20,080 nucleotides of DNA from a virus, in the IMG/VR virus record IMGVR_UViG_3300045922_000143, positions 1 to 20,080 of that record. One strand, given 5' to 3'. Shown one piece after another: positions 5,325 to 20,080 of the stretch (the stretch's first letter is position 1; every line of letters begins with the position of its first letter). The notes under the pieces were generated by a model. The model was not told the DNA's origin. It ran no database searches and worked only from the letters and a program-made list of their open reading frames with translations. A program made the translations under genes and the position numbers.

Positions 5325-5701
5325 CGCCTAACCCGGTGCGCGGCGAGATGCGCGTCACTTTGGCTGGCGAGCCTCTCGATTTGCGGCCTTCCTTTGAGTG
5401 CCTGGTTCAGATCGAACAGACATTGGGGAAGTCCATGCTTGCGCTTGCACGCTCGGCAGTCTCCGACGCAGGGCTGACCATCAATGAGATGGCCACCATC
5501 ATCAAGTGTGGTGCGGACGCTTTTGCCGACGCGCACAACACTGGCAATGTCTTCAACACCTCGACAATCGCGGGCCTGATTCTCAAGGAGGGCCTCGTTC
5601 CTTCGCTCGCGGCTGTGGTGCGGTTCCTTGAGGCGGCGGTTCTGGGAGGCGCGGAACCGGCCAAGGGGGAGGCGGGAAAGGCGGAGGCGCCCCGGATGTG
5701 A
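5321..5701 (+). CDS. Tail assembly chaperone, GTA gp10 family (gpG-like)
   Basis: The 126-residue product looks like the GTA TAC family (Phage_TAC_11): N-terminal G-E-M-R-V-T-L-A-G-E-P-L-D-L-R-P-S-F, then helices I-E-Q-T-L-G-K-S and I-N-E-M-A-T-I-I. Such chaperones coat the tape measure protein while the tail tube forms. The GTG start overlaps the tail tube stop by four bases. Near its 3' end, codons 119-120 read GGA AAG preceded by G, forming the heptamer GGGAAAG (5674-5680) in the X-XXY-YYZ phase. A -1 shift there enters the downstream frame without meeting a stop, so a longer 175-residue gpGT-like fusion is likely made as well. The unshifted product ends six residues after the site. Confidence 0.85.
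   Translation: MTPNPVRGEMRVTLAGEPLDLRPSFECLVQIEQTLGKSMLALARSAVSDAGLTINEMATIIKCGADAFADAHNTGNVFNTSTIAGLILKEGLVPSLAAVVRFLEAAVLGGAEPAKGEAGKAEAPRM
5674..5680 (+). promoter_or_regulatory. Probable -1 ribosomal frameshift site GGGAAAG
   Basis: The heptamer lies in frame as G GGA AAG in the upstream chaperone gene and is the same heptamer used in the lambda G/T tail chaperone frameshift. Slipping back one base puts ribosomes into the frame of the small downstream gene (5698-5847), which is open through this point. The site sits 19 bases before the upstream stop codon. Heptamer, phase and open frame are directly visible; use in the cell is inferred from the conserved dsDNA-phage mechanism. Confidence 0.75.
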
Positions 5702-5847
5702 TCGACTGGCGCCGTTTCATGGGCACGGCGGTGGCCCACATGGGATGGTGCCCAAACACTTTCTGGGCCTCTACGATGCATGAATATCAATCTGCGGCTG
5801 AGGCTCTGAGGGCCTCCGAGCCAAAGGGGATAGGCGGCGGTGTCTGA
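5698..5847 (+). CDS. Second tail chaperone segment, rcc01693/TAC_6-like
   Basis: A 49-residue frame opens at a GTG at 5698 that overlaps the upstream TGA and ends at the TGA at 5845. It carries the family pattern M-G-W-C-P-N-T-F-W-A-S-T-M-H-E-Y, close to the W.P..FW..T..E signature of the small GTA protein between gp10 and the tape measure (rcc01693 type, Phage_TAC_6). The protein may be made alone from the GTG, as the C-terminal part of a -1 frameshift fusion with the upstream chaperone, or both. Its stop overlaps the tape measure start. It is below the usual length cut-off for automatic gene calls. Confidence 0.8.
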   Translation: MIDWRRFMGTAVAHMGWCPNTFWASTMHEYQSAAEALRASEPKGIGGGV

Positions 5848-7492
5848 CGATATCAAAACACTCCTGCTGCGGATTGAAGCGACCACCGAGTTGTTGCGCG
5901 CGGAGACACGGCGTGGTGAGCAGTCGCTCGCGCGCCTCGATGAGCGCGCCACTAAGTCTGGCGAGAAGATCGACTCAGCGTTCGCGCGCATGTCTCGCGC
6001 GGCTGCGAGCCTCAAGACGGCCTTGGCTGGTCTTGCTGGCGGCATTGCAATTTCAACATTTCTCAGCCTTGGCCGTGGCGCCCTTCAATTCGCAGACGAC
6101 TTGCAGACTGCGGCGGACCGCGCGAATGTTTCGGTTGAGACGTATCAGCGGTTGCGCGAGGCGTTGCGCGCTCTTGAGCTGGACACTGCCCAGACAAACC
6201 GGGTGCTGGAAGGCCTGATCACGACGCTCGGCAAGGCTCAGACTGGCACTCTGTCCGATTCAGAGGTGGCAGCTCTTGAGCGGCTGGGTGTTGCGGCAAA
6301 GATCGCGTCCGGCGAGATTCAGGACACTGCCGGGCTTCTCGATGAGCTTGGGCGGGCTTCGGCGCGCTACTCCACACAGGCGCAGTTTGCGGCTGATTTG
6401 AGCGCGATCGTCGGTCAGCGGCTCGGTCCCAAGCTGGCTGCGGCGCTGGCTGATGGCGGGCAGGCGTTTCGGGATTTGGCAGCGGCGGCGAATGTCGCGA
6501 GCGATGCCCAGGTTGCGGCGCTCGCGGCAGCCAGTGAGGCGCTCGACCGGACGCGCGAAAATTGGAGGCGGTCTGTTATCTCAATTGCGGGATCCGCGGT
6601 TATCCTTTTCGAGCAGCTTGGTCAGGCGGTCCAGCTTTTCAGGCAGGCTGGTGGCCGCATTCCGCTTCTCGACGCACTCAAGGAGGTCCGGCGCGAGGCA
6701 GAGCTGGCGCAGAAGTTCCCGCTTGATCGCTTCCTGCCGCAGCCACCAAAGTCAGGCCCCCTTCCGCAGCAGCCGCCACGGTTCCGGAGTCCAGATAACG
6801 ACTCGTTCCCAAAGCTGGCAAAGAGTGTGCGCGAGACGGATAGGGAGTTGGCAGTATTTCAGGCGCGCATGGACAACTTTGCCGAAGTCGCGGCCAAGTT
6901 GACGGCAGAGGCTGGCAATTTCACCATGATGCGCGATGTCTTCAAGGACCTGGAGCCGATTATTCAGCGCACCATCCCGAACCTCTCCAAACCTTTTGAG
7001 GATGCCGCCAGATTTGCCCGTAGCCTGAGCGACAACCTTGCGCAGGCGATTGTCAATGGTCAGGGAATTGGTCGCGCGCTTGTCAGCAGCTTCAAGGCTG
7101 CGGCGGCGGAGGCAATTTCAAGCGGTCTTTTCCGTCTGCTGATCGGCACTGGCGAAACCGGAGTGCCTACGGGGTTAATCGGCGGCCTTTTTTCAAAGCT
7201 GGGCGGTCTTTTCGGAGGCTTCCGGGCGAGCGGCGGTCCTGTTTCGGCGGGCCGCGCATATGTTGTTGGGGAGCGCGGCCCTGAGCTGTTCGTGCCGCGC
7301 GCGGCGGGCGTGATCCAGCCATCTGCCGGAGGCGGCGGCACGGTCATCAATGTGGACGCTCGCGGCGCGGTCAGTCCTTCCGCTGTCGCGGAGGCGACTG
7401 TTTTCGCGGTCCGCACGGCCACACGCTACACGGACGCGCGGCTCGGTCGGATGGCGAGGCCGACACTGCCGCGTGGGGGAGGTGCGCCATGA
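5840..7492 (+). CDS. Tail tape measure protein
   Basis: This 550-residue protein has the composition and layout of a tape measure protein. A helical, coiled-coil-prone N-terminus (about 1-50) is followed by a hydrophobic stretch at about 53-75, long Ala/Leu-rich helices, a second hydrophobic segment near 245-262, a Pro/Gln-rich break near 293-320, and the typical C-terminal motif near 466-495 (G-R-A-Y-V-V-G-E-R-G-P-E-L-F-V-P). It sets tail length and helps DNA entry. It is longer than the RcGTA tape protein but short for siphoviruses, implying a short tail. The GTG at 5840 overlaps the chaperone stop, and it follows the chaperone pair as usual. Confidence 0.9.
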   Translation: MSDDIKTLLLRIEATTELLRAETRRGEQSLARLDERATKSGEKIDSAFARMSRAAASLKTALAGLAGGIAISTFLSLGRGALQFADDLQTAADRANVSVETYQRLREALRALELDTAQTNRVLEGLITTLGKAQTGTLSDSEVAALERLGVAAKIASGEIQDTAGLLDELGRASARYSTQAQFAADLSAIVGQRLGPKLAAALADGGQAFRDLAAAANVASDAQVAALAAASEALDRTRENWRRSVISIAGSAVILFEQLGQAVQLFRQAGGRIPLLDALKEVRREAELAQKFPLDRFLPQPPKSGPLPQQPPRFRSPDNDSFPKLAKSVRETDRELAVFQARMDNFAEVAAKLTAEAGNFTMMRDVFKDLEPIIQRTIPNLSKPFEDAARFARSLSDNLAQAIVNGQGIGRALVSSFKAAAAEAISSGLFRLLIGTGETGVPTGLIGGLFSKLGGLFGGFRASGGPVSAGRAYVVGERGPELFVPRAAGVIQPSAGGGGTVINVDARGAVSPSAVAEATVFAVRTATRYTDARLGRMARPTLPRGGGAP

Positions 7493-9203: not shown

Positions 9204-9616
9204 TGCGACTGCCGGACTGGGAGGCGCGTCTTGCGGCGCTGATCGAGGCGGTCAGAGATCGCCCATACCAGATCGGGAAATGGGATTGCGCTCAATTTTG
9301 CGGCGCGGCGGTTGAGGCGGTTCTGGGCGACAATCCGGCGGCGCCATTTCTGGGGCGCTACCGAAACAGAAAACAAGGAATACGCTTGCTGCCAGGGCGT
9401 CGCTTGAAGCTTCGGGCTTTTCTGACTGATCTGTTTGGCCCGCCCGTGGCGCCCCTCTTCCTGCGGCGCGGTGACATCGCAATGATGGCGACAGCCATCG
9501 GTGTGCGCTGGGGCGCGGGGCTGCTCTTTGTCGGCGCCGATGCGGGCGCAGATCGCGAGGGCCTAGTATATCGCCCGGTTGAGGATGCCCGCTGCGGCTG
9601 GAGGGTGGGCGCGTGA
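9191..9616 (+). CDS. DUF6950-like tail protein related to NlpC/P60 peptidases
   Basis: The 141-residue product shows the DUF6950 pattern: R-L-P-D-W-E-A-R-L at the start, the K-W-D-C-A-Q-F box near residue 35, a G-R-Y-R segment, R-R-G-D-I-A-M-M around residue 94 and a C-terminal C-G-W-R-V. The D-C-A box corresponds to the nucleophile cysteine of NlpC/P60 peptidases, which in GTA-type phages (gp14) cut peptidoglycan during DNA entry. The usual catalytic histidine after the G-D motif is not evident, so activity is uncertain. An alternative start at 9203 overlaps the upstream stop as TGATG and matches the usual M-R-L-P-D-W family start. Confidence 0.75.
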   Translation: MAAVMRLPDWEARLAALIEAVRDRPYQIGKWDCAQFCGAAVEAVLGDNPAAPFLGRYRNRKQGIRLLPGRRLKLRAFLTDLFGPPVAPLFLRRGDIAMMATAIGVRWGAGLLFVGADAGADREGLVYRPVEDARCGWRVGA

Positions 9617-12600
9617 GCAAGGTGCTGACCGCTGTCGCGGTTGTCGCGGCAGTCTTTGTGCCTTTCATAGGCCCCGCTCTCGCGCCCATCATCGGCTCAG
9701 CCTTTGCCTCGATTGGCGTAGGTCTCACCTGGGGTGTCGCGTCCGGCATTGGCTCGGCAATCGGCGCGGCGGGGGTGCTTGGCCTCAGTGGGACGGGCAA
9801 CAAGTTGGCGCGGAAAAAGGCGCGCGGCAGGCTTGTCGATCTGGACAGGATGGCCGTCAACACTGCTGCGGACGGCCCCCGAAAGGCGGTCTTTGGCCGG
9901 ACGGTCATGGCCGCTGATCTGCGCTACGTGGAGCCTTCGCCGGACTCCGAACAGCGATATGTGGACGCCATCATACATCTCGCCTCGCATCGCGTCACCT
10001 CCATCGAGGAGATGCGGATTGGCGACCGGGTAGCGTGGACATCTTCCGGCGGCGTTGCGGCAGAGTTCGCCGGGTTCCTGACTGTGTCGCCCATCCTTGA
10101 GGGCGGTCCGGCGGCTTACCACACGGTCAACAGCGGCTCGCGCTGGGGCGCTGCGCAGAGGCTGACGGGCTGCGCCAGTGTCAAAATCCGCGTGGACAGG
10201 CAATCGACAAAGCGTGCGGCCAGTCCTTTCAGTGCCGGAATTCCCTCGCAGATGGGCTTCATCGGGCAAGGCATGGCCGTCTACGACCCACGGCGCGACA
10301 GCACGGTTCCGGGCGGCTCCGGGCCGCATCGCGCAGACAATCAGTCCACATGGCAGTATAACGACGGCGGGACAGTGCTGGGCGAAAATCCTTCGCTGGT
10401 CGCGCTCGCCTATCTGCTGGGGTGGCGGATCAATGGCAAGGTGTCTGTTGGCCTCGGCATTCCGCCTTCGCTTCTCGATATGCCCGCTTTCGCGGCGGCG
10501 GCGAATGTGTGCGACGAAAGTGTCGCGCTGGCCGGCGGAGGCACGCAGCCACGCTACCGCATCAGCGGGCTCATTCCGGACGATGCGGATGAATCTGTGG
10601 TCCTCGAAGAGATCGCCAGATCAGCCAATGGCTATTTCGACGATTCGCGCGGGCGGCTTGGGTTCTTTATTGCCGTCAATGACCTTTCCGGGCCTCTGAT
10701 CGCCATCACTGAAGATGACATGAAGGGGCCTTTCTTCTGGGATCCATTCCCGGAGGTCGAAGAGCGATACAATGTCGTGCGGGGCACCTTCCTTGAGCCG
10801 GAGATGCCCGCCAACTTTCAGATGATATCTTTTCCAGATGTCCGCATCCCGTCCGTGGACGGAATTGACCGGGCGATGGTTGTCGCATATCCGATGGTCA
10901 CCGATTCGCGGCGCGCCCAGCGCCTCGCGAAACAGGCGTTGCAGCGCGCGCAGTATCGCGGACGCTTTCGCGTGCGGCTTGGGGTGCGGGGATGGCAGTT
11001 GTCATATGGGCAGCCTGTTAGTGTTTTCTTTTCGCCTCTGGGATGGGTGGGCAAAATCTTCCGCGTCCAGACGATTTCTTTCAACCCGGATGCGTCGGTT
11101 GAGGTTGAGTTCATTGAAGAGAATGCCGCAATCTACGCATGGGCGGCGGAAGAAGCGCCCATGCCTGAACCGGCGGTTCCCATCAAATATGACCCCAGGA
11201 ATAACCCCTTCCTGATTACTGAGGGGCCGCAGATCGGGGTTGAGGATGGCGCGACGCGCAATGTCTTTCGCGGCGCGTGGGCGGGCCTCCCGATGGCCAC
11301 TGCCTTCGTTCCGGGTGACGAGGTGCTTGACCAAGATGCAATCTGGGTCGCCACGACCGCCCACAATAAGACAGGAGGCAACGGGCCGCCGACGCTTCCG
11401 ACAACCTCCAACGCAACATGGCAACTCAAGTTGCAGGCTGGCGCGGGCGCTCCCGGCTCGACAGTCGTGCCGGTCATCATTTATCGCCGCTCTGCCACGG
11501 CGCCCAGCCTCCCTACTGGGACGGTCACAGTCACGCTCTCGACTGGTGCGGTCAGTGGGCTGACGGGCGGCTGGTCGCTTTCGATTCCGGCTTACGATGG
11601 CACTCCCGTCTGGTCAGCGCAAGCGGCGGCTTACGGGCTGGCGACTGACTCTGAAGATACAATCGCTCCCGGCGAGTGGATTGGGCCGCGCGAATTGGCG
11701 CGCGATGGCCAGCCCGCTCTGTCGGGCCTGCTGACCAACGAGGCTCATGTGGTCCAGACGGCCGCAGACGGGAGCGGCGGCAATTACACTGGCGCGGGCG
11801 GCACCTTCATCGTGCGGCGCGGCGAGACGGTCCTCACCTCGCCCGATGTCTCTTTTTCAATTGTCTCCAGTTCAGGCATCACAGGCCTGTCCATCAATTC
11901 GGCGACTGGCGTCTATTCGCTCACGGGCATGTCTGCGGCGACTGGCACCGCCACCTTCCGGGCGACAGTGGGCTCGCAAACGATAGATCGCGTCTATTCC
12001 ATCTCGCAGTCGCGCGCTGGTGCGGACGGGCAGGACGGGCAGGACGGGCAGGATGGAGCGCCTGGACAAGATGGGCAGGACGGCGCACCCGGGCAGGACG
12101 GAGACGACGCGCTCACCATCACGGCGCGGCCTTCTGTCGTCACGCTCTTGTCCAATTCTGCGGGCGTCATCAATTCCGGCCAGCTTCCGCGCACGGTCAA
12201 GCTGCAGGTCTATGAAAGTGTTTTCGATGTCACGGCGAGCGCCTCTTACACGGTGAGCGCCACCAACCTCACATTCACAGACCTGGGCGGGGGCGAATAC
12301 TCAATCACAGGGCTGACGGCGGAAACGGGCACGCTTCTCGTGATTGTTTCATCCGGCGGCAAGGTGGGCACTCTCCTGATCGTTGTCCAGAAGGTCCGGC
12401 AGGGCTCCAGCGCTTTGCAGGCGATTGACGACACTCTGCTCATTAATAGCTCTACGTCATATGTGGGTTCTGCGCAGGGAGGGCCTCTCGTTCTGGCGGT
12501 CTCCAACGGCACAATCAACCTGTCTGTCAATCACAGCTATGTCGGCGACAGTTCCGCCTCACGCTTGGCGGGTAAGGTCCAGTATCGCACGACGCCGGGA

Positions 12601-12807
12601 AGCGGGGCATGGATCGATGTCGCGTCCGAGACTGTAGCGGCTGGTTCGAACGGCCCGGGTGAGCCGGACACCCTCAGCTTTGCTGAAGGCCTGTCCGGGC
12701 CTCCTAGTCCAGAAAATTGGGAATTCCGCTACCTGAACCGCCGCTTTTCCGGCGGCACGGCATCCAATGACGGCACAGGGCAGCTGTTTGCTGTGGAGTT
12801 TGCATGA
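9613..12807 (+). CDS. Tail tip / host-specificity protein (J-like, Phage-tail_3 domain)
   Basis: This is the largest gene, with 1064 residues. A hydrophobic, Gly/Ala-rich N-terminus (about 4-60) precedes a beta-rich hub region with conserved-looking R-Y-V-D-A-I-I-H-L-A-S-H-R-V. The region around residues 360-510 has the Phage-tail_3 pattern (F-P-E-V-E-E-R-Y-N-V-V-R-G-T-F, then A-K-Q-A-L-Q-R-A-Q-Y-R-G, and V-E-F-I-E-E-N). After it come Ig-like strands, ten G-X-Y triplets at 803-832, and a beta-rich C-terminus that ends in a G-Q-L-F-A-V-E-F. It should form the tip fibre that contacts the receptor, with the C-terminal half as the specificity part. The GTG overlaps the upstream stop (GTGA) and the stop overlaps the next start (ATGA). 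Confidence 0.85.
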   Translation: MSKVLTAVAVVAAVFVPFIGPALAPIIGSAFASIGVGLTWGVASGIGSAIGAAGVLGLSGTGNKLARKKARGRLVDLDRMAVNTAADGPRKAVFGRTVMAADLRYVEPSPDSEQRYVDAIIHLASHRVTSIEEMRIGDRVAWTSSGGVAAEFAGFLTVSPILEGGPAAYHTVNSGSRWGAAQRLTGCASVKIRVDRQSTKRAASPFSAGIPSQMGFIGQGMAVYDPRRDSTVPGGSGPHRADNQSTWQYNDGGTVLGENPSLVALAYLLGWRINGKVSVGLGIPPSLLDMPAFAAAANVCDESVALAGGGTQPRYRISGLIPDDADESVVLEEIARSANGYFDDSRGRLGFFIAVNDLSGPLIAITEDDMKGPFFWDPFPEVEERYNVVRGTFLEPEMPANFQMISFPDVRIPSVDGIDRAMVVAYPMVTDSRRAQRLAKQALQRAQYRGRFRVRLGVRGWQLSYGQPVSVFFSPLGWVGKIFRVQTISFNPDASVEVEFIEENAAIYAWAAEEAPMPEPAVPIKYDPRNNPFLITEGPQIGVEDGATRNVFRGAWAGLPMATAFVPGDEVLDQDAIWVATTAHNKTGGNGPPTLPTTSNATWQLKLQAGAGAPGSTVVPVIIYRRSATAPSLPTGTVTVTLSTGAVSGLTGGWSLSIPAYDGTPVWSAQAAAYGLATDSEDTIAPGEWIGPRELARDGQPALSGLLTNEAHVVQTAADGSGGNYTGAGGTFIVRRGETVLTSPDVSFSIVSSSGITGLSINSATGVYSLTGMSAATGTATFRATVGSQTIDRVYSISQSRAGADGQDGQDGQDGAPGQDGQDGAPGQDGDDALTITARPSVVTLLSNSAGVINSGQLPRTVKLQVYESVFDVTASASYTVSATNLTFTDLGGGEYSITGLTAETGTLLVIVSSGGKVGTLLIVVQKVRQGSSALQAIDDTLLINSSTSYVGSAQGGPLVLAVSNGTINLSVNHSYVGDSSASRLAGKVQYRTTPGSGAWIDVASETVAAGSNGPGEPDTLSFAEGLSGPPSPENWEFRYLNRRFSGGTASNDGTGQLFAVEFA
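12019..12108 (+). repeat. Collagen-like G-X-Y repeat within the tail tip gene
   Basis: Ten consecutive in-frame triplets encode G-X-Y units (GAD, GQD three times, GAP, GQD twice, GAP, GQD, GDD), with nine-base DNA units varying around GGGCAGGAC. It probably forms a short trimeric collagen-like stalk separating the hub half from the C-terminal receptor-binding half. The repeat can expand or contract in frame by slippage. Confidence 0.9.
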
Positions 12808-13708: not shown

Positions 13709-14190
13709 TACAGGCCGCGACCATTGCCTATCCTGTCTCTCTTGCGGCGCTCATAGCCTTTCTGCTCGCGATGCGAGACAGCTTCGATCTCAGGACGGCG
13801 GTTGCCCTCTTCCTCAACTGGGTCGCTGGCCTTGTCGTGCTTGCCGTCACGCCAGTTGAGCAGGCATGGGCGCCTTTCATCGTCGTTGACGCGCTGACCG
13901 CCTATGTAATCCTCAGGCAGCCCGCACACATGCAGCAGGCCATTGTTGGCGGGCTGCTCTTGAGCCAGATCGTCTGGCACGCAGCGTTTGGATGGGTAGG
14001 GACGTCCTATTCGCTGCACTTCTACCTCACGGCCGTGAACCTGGCAGGGTGGCTCATGGTCGCAACTCTCTTTGGGGGTGCGGCTTATGACGGCGGCAGA
14101 AAGGTGCTTCTGGATTGGCGTGGCGCTAGCGGCGCTGGTGCGCCTTCTGCCCATGGTGATCGCGGCGTGGCGAAATGGCGCGGACCGTGA
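13705..14190 (+). CDS. Multi-pass membrane protein, holin candidate
   Basis: The 161-residue product has about four hydrophobic segments: residues near 6-24, 33-52, 80-100 and 108-130. The last 30 residues are hydrophilic and Arg/Gly-rich. It sits three genes upstream of the endolysin and could be a holin or another prophage membrane protein; the number of segments is higher than in most class I-III holins. Codon overlap (ATGA) and GGAGG upstream support the start. The C-terminal coding part overlaps a second small frame that starts at 14087. Confidence 0.6.
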   Translation: MIQAATIAYPVSLAALIAFLLAMRDSFDLRTAVALFLNWVAGLVVLAVTPVEQAWAPFIVVDALTAYVILRQPAHMQQAIVGGLLLSQIVWHAAFGWVGTSYSLHFYLTAVNLAGWLMVATLFGGAAYDGGRKVLLDWRGASGAGAPSAHGDRGVAKWRGP

Positions 14191-14200
14191 GCGCGAATGA
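14087..14200 (+). CDS. Small single-pass membrane protein, 37 residues
   Basis: A short frame starts at the ATG at 14087, behind a GGGGGTG ribosome-binding-like stretch, and ends at 14198-14200. It encodes one hydrophobic segment (C-F-W-I-G-V-A-L-A-A-L-V) flanked by basic and charged ends, finishing in D-R-E-R-E. It is nested in the 3' end of the upstream gene and the 5' end of the next one, a layout typical of compact phage lysis cassettes. It could be a small holin or antiholin. The evidence is the membrane-like composition and the context only. Confidence 0.45.
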   Translation: MTAAERCFWIGVALAALVRLLPMVIAAWRNGADRERE

Positions 14201-14441
14201 GGATCAGCCCGTTACGCGGTGGCAGGTCGCGATTGTGGTCGCAGCCATCATGCTTGCGGCGCCTGTCTTTGCTTGGGTCCTGAACAGCGAGGCAGAATGG
14301 AGGCGTGAGATGCAGAGCAGCGAGGCAGAATGGAGGCGGGAGATGCAGGCGCTGAGGGCGGAACATCGGGCGCTGCTTGGCCTCGTGTGCGAACAGCCGG
14401 AAAACGAGCGGCGCTATCCATGCCGGAGTCGGCATCAATGA
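14175..14441 (+). CDS. Single-pass membrane protein with hendecad repeats, i-spanin-like candidate
   Basis: The 88-residue product has one transmembrane segment at about 17-36 (V-A-I-V-V-A-A-I-M-L-A-A-P) followed by a highly charged helical region that contains two almost identical 11-residue units, (N/S)-S-E-A-E-W-R-R-E-M-Q, and a weaker continuation. Eleven-residue repeats favour coiled coils. An N-terminal anchor plus periplasmic coiled coil is the layout of Rz-type inner-membrane spanins, and the gene lies directly before the endolysin. A GTG at 14187, overlapping the upstream stop as GTGA, is an alternative start. Two cysteines close the C-terminus. The spanin role is a suggestion. Confidence 0.6.
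   Translation: MARTVSANEDQPVTRWQVAIVVAAIMLAAPVFAWVLNSEAEWRREMQSSEAEWRREMQALRAEHRALLGLVCEQPENERRYPCRSRHQ
14283..14348 (+). repeat. 33-bp tandem repeat, two copies
   Basis: Two adjacent 33-base units (14283-14315 and 14316-14348) differ at two positions only and encode two consecutive 11-residue charged helical units in the membrane protein before the endolysin. Such near identity points to recent duplication. Confidence 0.9.
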
Positions 14442-16681: not shown

Positions 16682-16860
16682 AGCACAGCCCTCCACGCCG
16701 CTTCCAGCGCGGGCCAGAAGACATGCGCGATCAGGAGCGTGATCGCCACGACAGCCATAACCATCCACGCGGCCTGCATCCGCTCCTTGACGATGCGGTC
16801 AATCTCCCCTTTCGGGATCGGGCCGTCATCGTGGCGACGGCCAGCGCGGGTGCTTCTCAT
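16678..16860 (-). CDS. Small single-pass membrane protein
   Basis: A 60-residue product starts at the ATG overlapping the upstream TGA (ATGA). A basic N-terminus (R-S-T-R-A-G-R-R-H) is followed by an amphipathic segment (I-D-R-I-V-K-E-R-M-Q) and one transmembrane helix (about 31-49, A-W-M-V-M-A-V-V-A-I-T-L-L-I). Positive residues before the helix suggest the N-terminus stays in the cytoplasm. It lies in the recombination-type operon, not the lysis module, so it may act on the host membrane early, for example in superinfection exclusion. That role is speculation. Confidence 0.65.
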   Translation of the reverse strand: MRSTRAGRRHDDGPIPKGEIDRIVKERMQAAWMVMAVVAITLLIAHVFWPALEAAWRAVL

Positions 16861-17993
16861 GCTACTTCCTCCTCTCTGATGGGGTTGCCCGGCGCCTGCT
16901 GAATGGTGAACGCACAACAGGTGGCCGGGCAATCTTCGGCGGGCGATTGAACGTTGGGTGTCCCTGTTCCATTGGCCCGCCACGCCCGCCACAGGTCTCG
17001 CAGCAGGCGTTTCTCGGTGTAGCGCTTGGCCCTGTTATGGGCGTGCGCTGCTGTCTCGACGCGTCCGGCCTCATAGGCCTTGCGCTCAAGGTAAAGCGCG
17101 CCATAGGGACCGATAGCGCGGCTGCCGGTGCGGGTGCCGTCCTCGTCCCTCTCGGCCCGCACTTGGGCCTTGATCAGGCACTCGCCGACATTCCACATCA
17201 GCGACCGCCGCGTCGGGCTGTATCCGTGCTCAAGCGCCGCATCACCGGCAACCCTGCGCTGCCGCCCGCCGCTGATGACGCCCAACCCCATCCGCTTCCA
17301 GAGCGCGGCGGGGCTGCGGAAGTCGCCCGGTGCATGGCCGCCGCACTCGCCGATGATGCCAGCAAGCGACACATCGCCCAGTCCTGACACGGTGGCGGTC
17401 CATTCGTGGATTGGCAGCGTCCTTACCAGCTTGGCAAGCGTGCGCTCGGTCGCGGCCTGTTGGGCCTCAAGCGGCTCCATGGCCGCCAGCATGGCACCGA
17501 GCCACGCACGCTCTGGCGCGGCAGGATCGCGCTTGACCTGCACCCATCGCTTGGCGGCTGCCACCTTATCGCCGTCGAGCAGGCGCCGCAGGACGGCCTG
17601 TGCCTGCAACTCCAGCCGCTGCCGGGCGCGTATCATGTCCTGCCGCAACCGGTGGTGCTCGACGATCTGCCCGATGGTGTCCGCGAGGGCGGGCGAGCGG
17701 TGGTTGTCGCAGGCCGATAGGCCCTCGCGGATGGGGCGAGCGGAAGGCGCCGCGCGCCTGGGTTTCGCGGCGTTTGTGGCCTTCCGCTCAGTGGTATCCG
17801 CGTGGGCGGACAGTCGGTGGTTGTCGCCATTCGGCAGGCCCTCGCGGATGGGTTGAGCGGAAGGCGCCTCGATACTGGTTTTCGGCTCACTTGTGACCTT
17901 CCGCTCAATGGTGCGAGGCGTCGAAGCCATGGGTTCCAATCTGGCATTGGCCTCGCCGCCGGTGGTTCCGGCGATTCCTGTGATCTCAAGCAT
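16857..17993 (-). CDS. IS110-like coiled-coil plus Tnp-domain protein lacking the RuvC-like domain
   Basis: This 378-residue protein has three parts. Residues 1-105 are hydrophilic and include two in-frame 39-residue repeats (28-66 and 67-105). Residues about 106-195 are helical and Arg/Leu/Ala-rich. Residues about 196-340 match the C-terminal transposase domain of the IS110/IS116/IS902 family: a helix-hairpin-helix-like V-S-G-L-G-D-V-S-L-A-G-I-I-G-E-C-G, then D-F-R-S-P-A-A-L-W-K-R-M-G-L, the I-S-G-G-R block with Ser241 where the catalytic serine lies, H-G-Y-S-P-T-R-R-S-L, and the terminal A-H-A-H-N-R-A-K-R-Y-T-E-K-R-L-L-R. The N-terminal DEDD/RuvC-like half is missing. It is part of a phage operon with RecT, not flanked by transposon ends, so it is probably a phage DNA-binding or recombination protein. 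CAGGAGAC precedes the start, which overlaps the previous gene by eight bases. Confidence 0.7.
   Translation of the reverse strand: MLEITGIAGTTGGEANARLEPMASTPRTIERKVTSEPKTSIEAPSAQPIREGLPNGDNHRLSAHADTTERKATNAAKPRRAAPSARPIREGLSACDNHRSPALADTIGQIVEHHRLRQDMIRARQRLELQAQAVLRRLLDGDKVAAAKRWVQVKRDPAAPERAWLGAMLAAMEPLEAQQAATERTLAKLVRTLPIHEWTATVSGLGDVSLAGIIGECGGHAPGDFRSPAALWKRMGLGVISGGRQRRVAGDAALEHGYSPTRRSLMWNVGECLIKAQVRAERDEDGTRTGSRAIGPYGALYLERKAYEAGRVETAAHAHNRAKRYTEKRLLRDLWRAWRANGTGTPNVQSPAEDCPATCCAFTIQQAPGNPIREEEVA
17674..17907 (-). repeat. 117-bp in-frame tandem repeat, two diverged copies
   Basis: Units 17674-17790 and 17791-17907 align with a constant offset of 117 bases (39 codons) and similarity runs a few bases beyond. 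Each carries a ten-base inverted repeat, GAGCGGAAGG and CCTTCCGCTC (17738-17747 with 17780-17789; 17855-17864 with 17897-17906). In copy one an inner CGCCGCG/CGCGGCG pair could extend the hairpin. The repeats encode the 39-residue units of the IS110-like protein. Confidence 0.88.
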
Positions 17994-18531
17994 CGCGTGT
18001 CTCCTGTTGCAGTGCGCGCAGGTCTTCTTCGTTCAGGACGTCCGACACAATCGCATTGCCGACGCGCGCGGCAATCGCCTCAAGCCACCGCGCCTTCCAG
18101 ACGGCATCGGAGGCCGTGTGGCGATAGGCGGACGCGCCCTCGATGCAGTCCGCTGCCGTGGCATCGCGGAGCAGGCCGCCACCCGGCAGGGGGAAGTCCA
18201 TGAGCGTCGCCGACAGCGCCATCCGCAGACGCGATCCGCGCGCGGCATCGGCCTCGCTGCGCAGACGAAAAACCGCCGTCCGGTGCGCGCTTGCGGCCTG
18301 CCGCACCTGATCGCGGCACCAGGCGGCGAACGCCATCCGCCGCGCCTTTCTGAGCATCTCCCGATCAGCCTCAAGGGCCTTCGCAAACCGCTCGGCGGCG
18401 GCGTCAAAGTCGCCGTGCGACGCCTCCCACGCAGCGCGTGCCATGGCGCCGATGCTGTCACCACCGGGGGCGCTAATCCGCTGGTTGGCGGCGACGTTAT
18501 GGCCCCCGGTGGTGTTCGTGCGTTCTGTCAT
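17986..18531 (-). CDS. Hypothetical helical protein
   Basis: A 181-residue protein starts at the ATG overlapping the upstream TGA (ATGA). The first 25 residues are polar and disordered-looking; the rest is helical, with A-R-A-A-W-E-A-S-H-G-D-F-D-A-A-A-E-R-F-A-K-A-L-E resembling a helix pair, then a basic region and a C-terminal A-R-W-L-E-A-I-A-A-R-V-G-N-A-I. I do not recognise the family. Being between RecT and the IS110-like gene and overlapping both neighbours, it may act in phage DNA replication or recombination. Confidence 0.65.
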   Translation of the reverse strand: MTERTNTTGGHNVAANQRISAPGGDSIGAMARAAWEASHGDFDAAAERFAKALEADREMLRKARRMAFAAWCRDQVRQAASAHRTAVFRLRSEADAARGSRLRMALSATLMDFPLPGGGLLRDATAADCIEGASAYRHTASDAVWKARWLEAIAARVGNAIVSDVLNEEDLRALQQETRDA

Positions 18532-19007: not shown

Positions 19008-20080
19008 TCATTCCCGATCGGCATCGACCGGCGCGGCGGCAAAGTCGCGCTTCATCCGGTCCTTGAGCGCCACCAGCATGATGTAAGTCTCAGGGTCCAT
19101 CGCCTTGAGCTTGATGAGGTCGCTCTTGAGCTCAATCCAGTTCGCCTCCAGCGTGGCCGCCGTCGACATCTTGAGCTTGCGCTCGATGCTGGCGGCCAGC
19201 ACGACGCTTTCCGGCTCGCCCATGTCGAAGCCCTCGGGCATTTCCTCGGCGGCATCCTCGACCGCGAACGGCAGATCGCCGGGAAAGTCGTCGTCATCCG
19301 GCTGCGCCCCTTCGTCCGTGTCCTCAGCGCCCCCCGCAATATACTGCTCGAGCGCGTCAAGCCGCGACTGCGGCGCCGGCTGCTGCGGCGAGGCAATCAA
19401 CATCGCCGCCGCGTCGGCCTGCATCGTCTCGTCACGCTCGAACTCGGCCTCGATGTCCGTGCTCATCGGCAGCCTTTTTGCCAGCCGGCGCATGACCGTT
19501 TTGCGCGCCATTTCGCCCCACCATGCGAGCCACGGCCCATTGTCCCTGGAGCGGCTGACGCTGCGGACCTGTTCGATCTGCTGGCGGCTCATGATTTCAA
19601 CGAATGCCGCGCCGTTCTTGAGCCGGGCAACGGCATAGGCACCCACCACCTTCCCGCGCTCCCCGAACCAGTCAGGCTCGTGAACGGGCACTTCATCGAT
19701 GCCGGGGCGATAGGTAAACTTGTCCGCCTCGTGCACAAGCTGGGCGTCAATGCTTGCCAATTCGCCCGACTGCCGGACCTTTTTCAGGATGCCGGCTACC
19801 ATCGGCATCCACTGGACCTGGGCGCCGTGCTTGCCCTTGAAGATCACAAGCGCGCCTTCGCGTCCGTCCGGCAACAGACCGTCCTGCGCCGCCTTGACGA
19901 TGGCCCCGAACAGCGAGCGACGGTCGGCGTCCAGAAGAGCGGGCGTCGATTGAATGGCCGTCATCGTGACGCGCTGAAACTTGTCAACCGACACGTGGCT
20001 AGGCAGCGCCATCTTGAGTTGCTCGCCCATTGTGGACAGCGTCTGCCGCACCACGGCAACGGGGTCTGCTCGCCGCTCTG
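19008..20080 (-). CDS. recT: RecT-family single-strand annealing protein (partial, start outside window)
   Basis: The frame is open to the right edge; residues before the first internal start (A-D-P-V-A-V-V-R-Q-T-L) continue the RecT N-terminal pattern, so the true start lies beyond base 20080. RecT landmarks are present in order: A-L-P-S-H-V, F-Q-R-V-T-M-T-A-I, S-L-F-G-A-I-V-K-A-A-Q-D-G-L, H-G-A-Q-V-Q-W-M-P-M, then H-E-A-D-K-F-T-Y-R-P-G, A-Y-A-V-A-R-L-K-N-G, the N-G-P-W-L-A-W-W-G-E-M-A-R-K-T box and R-L-A-K-R-L-P-M-S-T-D. RecT binds single-stranded DNA and anneals complementary strands in phage recombination. After the core comes a very acidic linker (D-D-D-D-F-P-G-D-L) and an extra helical segment. 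No exonuclease partner is visible here; it may lie outside. Confidence 0.93.
   Translation of the reverse strand, partial: ERRADPVAVVRQTLSTMGEQLKMALPSHVSVDKFQRVTMTAIQSTPALLDADRRSLFGAIVKAAQDGLLPDGREGALVIFKGKHGAQVQWMPMVAGILKKVRQSGELASIDAQLVHEADKFTYRPGIDEVPVHEPDWFGERGKVVGAYAVARLKNGAAFVEIMSRQQIEQVRSVSRSRDNGPWLAWWGEMARKTVMRRLAKRLPMSTDIEAEFERDETMQADAAAMLIASPQQPAPQSRLDALEQYIAGGAEDTDEGAQPDDDDFPGDLPFAVEDAAEEMPEGFDMGEPESVVLAASIERKLKMSTAATLEANWIELKSDLIKLKAMDPETYIMLVALKDRMKRDFAAAPVDADRE

What the first reader, a model, noticed from the sequence alone, without database searches (positions are those of the whole stretch)
16857..17993. RuvC-less IS110-type protein inside a RecT operon
The protein keeps the helical and Tnp parts of an IS110 recombinase, including the serine block and C-terminal basic helix, but the DEDD/RuvC-like half that cooperates in IS110 strand exchange is absent, replaced by a 105-residue repeat-bearing segment. 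It is an ordinary member of a tightly overlapping phage operon with a recT gene. This suggests a domesticated transposase domain used as a DNA-binding or recombination cofactor, or perhaps a serine recombinase working without a RuvC domain. I know of no described system of this kind.
Basis: partly seen in the sequence, partly recalled or inferred. Interest (0 to 1): 0.78.

Follow-up and report, generated by a model that had tools for sequence, protein, structure and literature searches.

The report
Guide-RNA array inside its effector gene
The odd phage protein is the RNA-binding partner (TasA) of a recently described RNA-guided DNA-targeting system, TIGR-Tas, and the "repeat segment" at its start is the system's own guide-RNA array, sitting in frame inside the protein's gene, an arrangement I found described nowhere in the literature I could read.

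Summary
The ORF at 16857-17993 (-) is real and has no RuvC domain, but it is not a domesticated IS110 transposase. Its residues 106-342 form a Nop domain whose nearest relatives are the TIGR-Tas proteins TasR and TasH. It has no nuclease domain, so it is a TasA. The "105-residue repeat-bearing segment" is DNA of a stem-loop TIGR guide array: five units here, two in the 3' tail of the same ORF and one at the 5' end of the upstream ORF. Each unit is stem-CCA-N9-YG-N4-CCA-N9-YG-stem. The core motif occurs 171 times on the tas strand of related loci and 3 times on the other; 1.8 are expected. Spacers are replaced wholesale between relatives while boxes and stems stay. What looks new is that the array lies in frame inside tasA. 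In 16 loci there is no start codon between a unit and the conserved first helix, flanking codons evolve as coding sequence, and Shine-Dalgarno starts usually lie upstream of units. A conserved unknown gene, not recT, is tasA's constant neighbour. Expression, processing and targets are untested. The published supplement was not readable.

The parts
16857..17993 (-). tasA ORF, 378 codons; 5' part carries five guide units in frame, middle codes the Nop domain, 3' tail carries two guide units
16968..17678 (-). Nop domain (residues 106-342): coiled coil plus RNA-binding domain; best structural match TIGR-TasR 9mty
   Evidence: AlphaFold2 pLDDT 92.3, pTM 0.86; TasR Z 17.7, rmsd 2.5, 187 aligned
18001..18005 (-). 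Shine-Dalgarno AGGAG, 7 nt before the tasA ATG at 17993; lies inside the upstream ORF
   Evidence: sequence; SD scan; same in L002
18459..18514 (-). guide unit 1: caccaccggggg-CC-ATAACGTCGC-CGCCAACC-AGCGGATTAG-CG-cccccggtggtg, in the 5' codons of the upstream ORF; spacers the same in L002
17913..17956 (-). guide unit 2: gcgagg-CC-AATGCCAGAT-TGGAACCC-ATGGCTTCGA-CG-cctcgc; spacers replaced in L002
17853..17908 (-). guide unit 3: ttgagcggaagg-TC-ACAAGTGAGC-CGAAAACC-AGTATCGAGG-CG-ccttccgctcaa; spacers replaced in L002
17796..17849 (-). guide unit 4: atccgcgaggg-CC-TGCCGAATGG-CGACAACC-ACCGACTGTC-CG-cccacgcggat; spacers replaced in L002
17737..17790 (-). guide unit 5: tgagcggaagg-CC-ACAAACGCCG-CGAAACCC-AGGCGCGCGG-CG-ccttccgctcg; spacers replaced in L002
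17680..17731 (-). guide unit 6: tccgcgaggg-CC-TATCGGCCTG-CGACAACC-ACCGCTCGCC-CG-ccctcgcgga; ends just before the first Nop helix
16937..16982 (-). guide unit 7, weak (box D reads GG): tggcggg-CC-AATGGAACAG-GGACACCC-AACGTTCAAT-CG-cccgccg, in frame after the Nop domain
   Evidence: canonical TG box D at the same place in L002
16885..16932 (-). guide unit 8: ttgcccgg-CC-ACCTGTTGTG-CGTTCACC-ATTCAGCAGG-CG-ccgggcaa, in frame in the 3' tail; spacer A differs in L002, spacer B is the same
17986..18531 (-). conserved partner ORF, 181 aa, function unknown; homologue near tas in nearly all loci, usually directly upstream
   Evidence: no significant Pfam, PHROG or PDB match
19008..20054 (-). recT single-strand annealing protein; same operon, but not a conserved neighbour of tasA
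   Evidence: Pfam RecT 6e-44

Best explanation
A phage-borne TIGR-TasA system with a stem-loop guide array. One operon transcript carries eight hairpins. Each hairpin presents two 9-nt spacers, each between a box C (CCA) and a box D (YG), which a TasA dimer should bind as TasR binds tigRNA. A cellular nuclease should release the hairpins as single guides. The ribonucleoprotein should bind an 18-bp duplex, spacer A pairing with one strand and spacer B with the other, without cutting, because TasA has no nuclease; it would block, bend or mark DNA of a competitor or host. The unusual feature is that most of the array lies in frame inside tasA: translation starts at 17993 and ribosomes read through guide units before and after the Nop domain, so the same RNA is message and guide precursor. 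Shown here by comparison: family membership, array, spacer turnover, in-frame embedding. Inferred: transcription, processing, DNA binding and its purpose. Speculative: that guide excision cuts the tasA message and so limits TasA level.
For: Protein: NCBIfam TIGR-Tas model 2.5e-22 over residues 119-339; profile hits only TasR 9mty (4e-24) and TasH (9e-12) in the PDB; AlphaFold model best matches TasR Z 17.7 and TasH Z about 16, ahead of IS621/ISCro4 about 14 and Nop5 8.6. Array: core CCA-N9-YG-N4-CCA-N9-YG found 171 times on the tas strand, 3 on the other, 1.8 expected in 291 kb; 140 of 171 are flanked by at least 6 of 7 pairable bases, 12 expected when arms are dealt out anew. In 189 units the unselected base after box C is A in 86% and 82%, and the spacers are near even. 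Spacer turnover: among six relatives of one group, spacers differ at 66% of sites equally over codon positions (70/64/64), while the following codons differ mostly at position 3 (45/19/150). Embedding: window aa 1-106 versus L002 differ without third-position bias, aa 107-290 with it; Arg at window residues 115 and 117 is at least 90% conserved, upstream of the first later ATG; in 16 loci no ATG/GTG/TTG separates a unit from that Arg (28 units), and 9 loci have units in frame after the Nop domain; near-Nop codon-position counts 7/0/17, 3/1/17, 1/0/11, and a whole 66-nt unit inserted in frame; over 5' unit clusters the tas frame has 8 stops versus 41 and 77 in the other frames; unit phases 41/38/3 inside versus 38/30/30 outside the frame.
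Against: No RNA or protein data. The window's NCBIfam score (79.9) is below that model's naming cut-off (100). Units within a locus and loci within a clade are related, so counts are not independent; the embedded set is defined by open frames, and high G+C favours open frames (one other frame is also open across the window array). Several relatives have a start just before the Nop domain and arrays outside the 5' frame (L016, L027, L034, L038), so embedding is not obligatory. Non-standard start codons (ATC, ATT, CTG) between array and Nop are not excluded. No target was found for the spacers.
Confidence: 0.86

Rival explanations
1. Same TIGR-TasA system, but the array is an untranslated 5' region: TasA starts internally (for instance TTG 116, ATG 120 or a non-standard codon) and the long ORF through the array is a by-product of high G+C content.
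For: G+C-rich DNA has long chance ORFs; one of the other two frames is also open through the window array. ATG 120 exists in the window, and an SD-like GAGG precedes it in L002. Some relatives start next to the Nop domain with the 5' array outside the frame (L016, L034, L038).
Against: Arg 115 and 117 are conserved upstream of that ATG and lie in the first helix. The codons before it change synonymously. L051 and L052 have only one in-frame start, upstream of a unit. Unit phase and stop counts are skewed. Guide units downstream of the Nop domain are in frame with no stop before them.
Confidence: 0.12
2. Domesticated IS110 transposase domain acting as a recombination cofactor of RecT, the N-terminal repeats being a protein domain.
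For: Shared Nop/Tnp fold with IS621 (Z about 14); recT in the same operon.
Against: Closer to Tas proteins by sequence and structure; no conserved serine; recT absent near tas in the other loci within the stretches held; repeats change without codon constraint and also occur outside ORFs with the same motif.
Confidence: 0.02
3. A TIGR-TasA RNP that regulates the phage's own or the host's genes rather than attacking competitors (a rival on purpose, not on what the system is).
For: No nuclease; in Rhizobium phage RHph_X2_25 the locus lies beside the repressor gene. TasA DNA bending was proposed as an aid to phage integrases (PMC12045711).
Against: Spacers turn over completely between close relatives, unlike fixed regulatory sites. 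No self-targets in the held phage DNA beyond shuffled pairings, and three guides tested found no exact site in one carrier genome.
Confidence: 0.25

Closest known systems
TIGR-TasA with stem-loop array (Peromyscus gut contig; Faure et al. 2025, PMC12045711)
   Same: Solo Nop protein without nuclease; tandem hairpins with two short spacers, each between box C and box D; array around the tas gene
   Different: There the array is described as sub-arrays separated by intergenic sequence, and arrays lie upstream or downstream of tas; here most units lie in frame inside the tasA ORF, at both ends. The loop is a fixed 8-nt element as in dual-repeat arrays, and an unknown partner gene is constant
TIGR-TasR / TasH (PDB 9mty, 9vzx)
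   Same: Nop fold; TasR boxes CCA and UG with 9-nt spacers and C-G closing pairs
   Different: Those carry RuvC or HNH nuclease domains and compact dual-repeat arrays
IS110/IS621 bridge-RNA transposases
   Same: Related Nop/Tnp domain fold
   Different: No RuvC-like DEDD domain and no conserved serine here; RNA is an array of units, not one bridge RNA
Archaeal Nop5 box C/D RNP
   Same: Distant Nop fold (Z 8.6) and C/D-box guide logic
   Different: No L7Ae or fibrillarin found here; targets RNA for methylation

Membership tests
TIGR-Tas (TasA) | Protein is a Nop domain of the Tas type | tested here: met
   NCBIfam NF052498 E 2.5e-22 (79.9 bits, under the naming cut-off of 100; L003 107 and L005 193 exceed it); PDB profile hits TasR and TasH only; TasR Z 17.7
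TIGR-Tas (TasA) | No nuclease domain (separates TasA from TasR and TasH) | tested here: met
   No Pfam, PHROG or NCBIfam nuclease domain outside the Nop match; outside the Nop domain only array-coded sequence and short tails
TIGR-Tas (TasA) | Tandem units with two 8-12 nt spacers, each between box C and box D | tested here: met
TIGR-Tas (TasA) | Stem-loop array: palindromic flanks closing each unit | tested here: met
   140 of 171 core motifs, chosen without regard to stems, have at least 6 of 7 flanking pairs; control mean 12
TIGR-Tas (TasA) | Variable spacers with conserved repeats | tested here: met
TIGR-Tas (TasA) | Array adjacent to (upstream or downstream of) the tas gene, as published | tested here: met
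   Adjacent, and moreover overlapping the coding frame
TIGR-Tas (TasA) | Array transcribed and processed into tigRNAs bound by Tas | not testable with these tools
   needs RNA sequencing
TIGR-Tas (TasA) | Tandem-spacer DNA target | tested here: inconclusive
   One sequence match, in four copies of one freshwater phage site, at chance level; no enrichment over shuffled spacer pairs
IS110/IS621 transposase | N-terminal RuvC-like DEDD domain | tested here: not met
   Sequence before residue 106 is array-coded; no match in Pfam, PHROG or NCBIfam
IS110/IS621 transposase | Conserved serine in the Tnp domain | tested here: not met
   Ser241 only in window and L002 among 28 sequences
IS110/IS621 transposase | Bridge RNA with target and donor loops, element ends | not tested
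   -
RecT-associated recombination cofactor | Conserved neighbourhood with recT | tested here: not met
   RecT homologue only in L002 among the loci within the flanks held

The most novel reading that the evidence does not exclude
An RNA-guided system whose guide array is translated as part of its own effector: one RNA segment serves both as the N-terminal (and C-terminal) coding sequence of TasA and as the precursor of its guides, so that making guides destroys the message and TasA output is self-limiting. Hypervariable spacers are thereby constrained to lack stop codons in one frame.
Probability: 0.5. Interest if true: 0.85.

Novelty: new variant of a known kind. Interest (0 to 1): 0.74.

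Why it matters
TIGR-Tas is a young family with open questions: how arrays arise, what guides target, and what nuclease-free TasA does. Here is a phage and prophage clade (mainly alphaproteobacterial) with a clean unit grammar (CCA-N9-YG-N4-CCA-N9-YG in a hairpin), complete spacer turnover between close relatives, and arrays overlapping the effector's own reading frame. A guide array read by ribosomes would be a new kind of overlapping gene and gives a direct handle on how message and guide production are balanced. The conserved unknown gene next to tasA is a concrete candidate for a missing accessory factor (processing, spacer acquisition or target action). The sequenced Rhizobium phage RHph_X2_25 offers an experimental model.

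Tried and rejected
Catalytic serine: rejected, not conserved. recT partnership: rejected beyond L002. Protein repeat domain: rejected, changes are spread over all codon positions. Open frame alone as evidence of translation: not relied on, since G+C-rich DNA keeps other frames open too. Spacer targets: unit-1 spacers matched four identical copies of one freshwater phage site with a 2-bp gap, about what chance gives. Shuffled spacer pairing gave as many near matches in held DNA. No match for window or RHph_X2_25 guides in the phage collection (the search is weak for 18-nt sites), and none for three guides in the genome carrying L037. Rfam: nothing relevant. Partner protein: no significant Pfam, PHROG or PDB sequence match and no PDB fold match; its model is only moderately confident (pTM 0.39). 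Plasmids: no relative. The L003 units are longer and were not found by the fixed-geometry scan. That array and the dual-repeat array of L005 were read by eye.

Full report
WHAT WAS CHECKED. The 378-aa ORF at 16857-17993 (-) exists and lies in an operon whose genes overlap by a few bases, with recT at 19008-20054. So the anatomy reported is right; its meaning is different.

THE PROTEIN. Pfam gives nothing at E 1, PHROGs gives a 'transposase' family (2e-21), and NCBIfam gives NF052498, 'TIGR-Tas system RNA-guided endonuclease', 2.5e-22 over residues 119-339. A profile of five relatives finds only TasR (9mty, 4e-24) and TasH (21kl and others, 9e-12) in the PDB. The AlphaFold model of residues 106-342 (28-row alignment, pLDDT 92.3, pTM 0.86) matches TasR with Z 17.7, TasH with Z about 16, IS621/ISCro4 about 14, and archaeal Nop5 8.6. 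There is no nuclease domain, so in the published nomenclature this is TasA (PMC12045711). Serine 241, proposed as an IS110-type serine, is found only in the window and its nearest relative.

THE ARRAY. Comparison with L002, a contig 83% identical over the whole ORF, shows that residues 107-290 differ mainly at third codon positions (3/1/13 and 2/4/15), but residues 27-106 differ equally at all three (18/21/19). Within those 80 codons, conserved blocks alternate with 10-nt blocks that are largely different. The pattern is a hairpin holding CC-N10-CGAAACCC-N10-CG. A scan for it finds eight units in the window (listed under parts), one with a weak box D. In related loci from viral contigs and bacterial genomes (37 fetched), the same units surround most tas genes. 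The core CCA-N9-YG-N4-CCA-N9-YG, without any stem requirement, occurs 171 times on the tas strand and 3 times on the opposite strand of 291 kb, with 1.8 expected. Of these, 140 have at least six of seven flanking bases able to pair, against 12 (maximum 21 of 200 shuffles) when arms are dealt out at random. These are the published boxes (C = CCA, D = UG), the published 9-nt spacers and the published stem-loop array type (PMC12045711). The loop is a fixed 8-nt element, like the loop repeat of dual-repeat arrays. The distant Microcystis phage Mvi-JY20 has a dual-repeat array with the same loop, CGAAACCC, downstream of its tas gene (L005 about 5600-5930, by eye).

THE ARRAY IS INSIDE THE GENE. Five lines of evidence. 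(a) Starts: the tasA ATG has AGGAG seven bases upstream, inside the preceding ORF. In most relatives the SD-preceded start likewise lies upstream of one to ten units. (b) No alternative start: Arg 115 and Arg 117 are at least 90% conserved and lie in the first helix of the model. In 16 loci, the window included, no ATG, GTG or TTG lies between at least one unit and Arg 115, 28 units in all. In the window that holds for four units. L051 and L052 have a single in-frame start, 45 nt upstream of a unit. (c) Coding signal on both sides: between the last unit and the Nop domain mismatches are third-position biased (7/0/17, 3/1/17, 1/0/11 by codon position in three pairs), and the leader before the units is itself conserved as protein in L004, L012 and L013 (S-[EQ]-ICAVVETTT, read from the sequences). 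L013 has one whole extra unit, 66 nt, in frame relative to L012. In the group of L033, spacers differ at 66% of sites evenly (70/64/64) while the codons after the unit differ at 22% with 45/19/150. (d) Frame: over unit clusters upstream of the Nop domain the tas frame has 8 stops, the other frames 41 and 77. The 8 come from four loci (L007, L009, L011, L016) whose units extend beyond the open frame. Units in the open frame occupy phases 41/38/3, units outside it 38/30/30; the avoided phase is the one in which units most often hold a stop. Without selecting on frame, units within 300 nt upstream show 35/30/6. (e) The 3' side: two window units, and 13 units in 9 loci by the stricter count (which takes one of the two window units), lie in frame after the Nop domain with no stop before them, so any ribosome that makes the Nop domain must read them. 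Units and loci are related, so these counts are not independent trials. Embedding is common but not universal (not 5' in L003, L005, L016, L027, L034).

THE PARTNER GENE. recT is near tasA only in the window and L002. The ORF at 17986-18531, however, has homologues near tas in nearly all loci, usually directly upstream. Searching viral contigs from this gene alone returned 18 loci, several of them already seen, 17 with a tas gene downstream; the other is a 2.9-kb fragment ending at the gene. It has no significant Pfam, PHROG or PDB match. One guide unit lies in its 5' codons in the window, where the model is low in confidence and probably disordered. The 2025 paper reports ParB-like genes as occasional TasA neighbours; I found no sign that this is one.

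MECHANISM. By homology with TasR, a TasA dimer should hold one hairpin, box C and box D pairs on each protomer, and let spacer A pair with one strand and spacer B with the other of an 18-bp site. Without a nuclease the outcome is binding and bending. Because the guides come from the coding part of the same mRNA, excision of guides should remove the start region from the message; I propose, without direct evidence, that this limits TasA. The complete replacement of spacers between close relatives suggests changing targets, such as rival phages or plasmids, but no target was found.

NOVELTY. TIGR-Tas, TasA and stem-loop arrays are known. In-frame embedding of the array and the constant partner gene are not mentioned in the parts of the 2025 paper's main text that I searched or read, or in other papers found. 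Its supplement could not be read, so earlier notice there is possible.

Noticed in passing
window 17986-18531 (-); homologues e.g. L033:3304-3825, L010:2864-3460: Conserved gene family of unknown function near tasA; 17 of 18 viral loci found from this gene alone have tas downstream.
   Followed up: yes
L005:5600-5930 (Microcystis phage Mvi-JY20): Dual-repeat TIGR array (edge TGCGAGCC, loop CGAAACCC) downstream of a TasA gene annotated as hypothetical; same loop as the stem-loop units of the window clade, perhaps a link between the two array types.
   Followed up: partly
L004:4749-5804 (Rhizobium phage RHph_X2_25, QWY83253.1): A sequenced phage of Sinorhizobium with units inside and on both sides of tasA, next to the repressor gene; good experimental model.
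   Followed up: partly
L003:3350-3690: Stem-loop array downstream of tas with longer hairpins and linkers not matching the fixed geometry.
   Followed up: no
Mycobacterium phage Rich (KY224000), Gordonia phage Morrissey (MH271305), Arthrobacter phage Talia1610 (PQ559666), prophiFSAT01-1 (BK061308): Weak Tas-like matches in hypothetical proteins of actinobacterial phages; arrays not examined.
   Followed up: no
L043-L046: Spacer pair of window unit 1 matches one site (2-bp gap) in a small gene of a freshwater phage, four identical copies; at chance level.
   Followed up: partly
window 9613-12807 (+): Large tail protein with a collagen-like GQDGQDGQDGAPGQDG stretch.
   Followed up: no
window 14285-14348 (+): Nearly perfect 33-bp tandem duplication in frame in a small ORF (14175-14441) before the lysozyme gene.
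   Followed up: no
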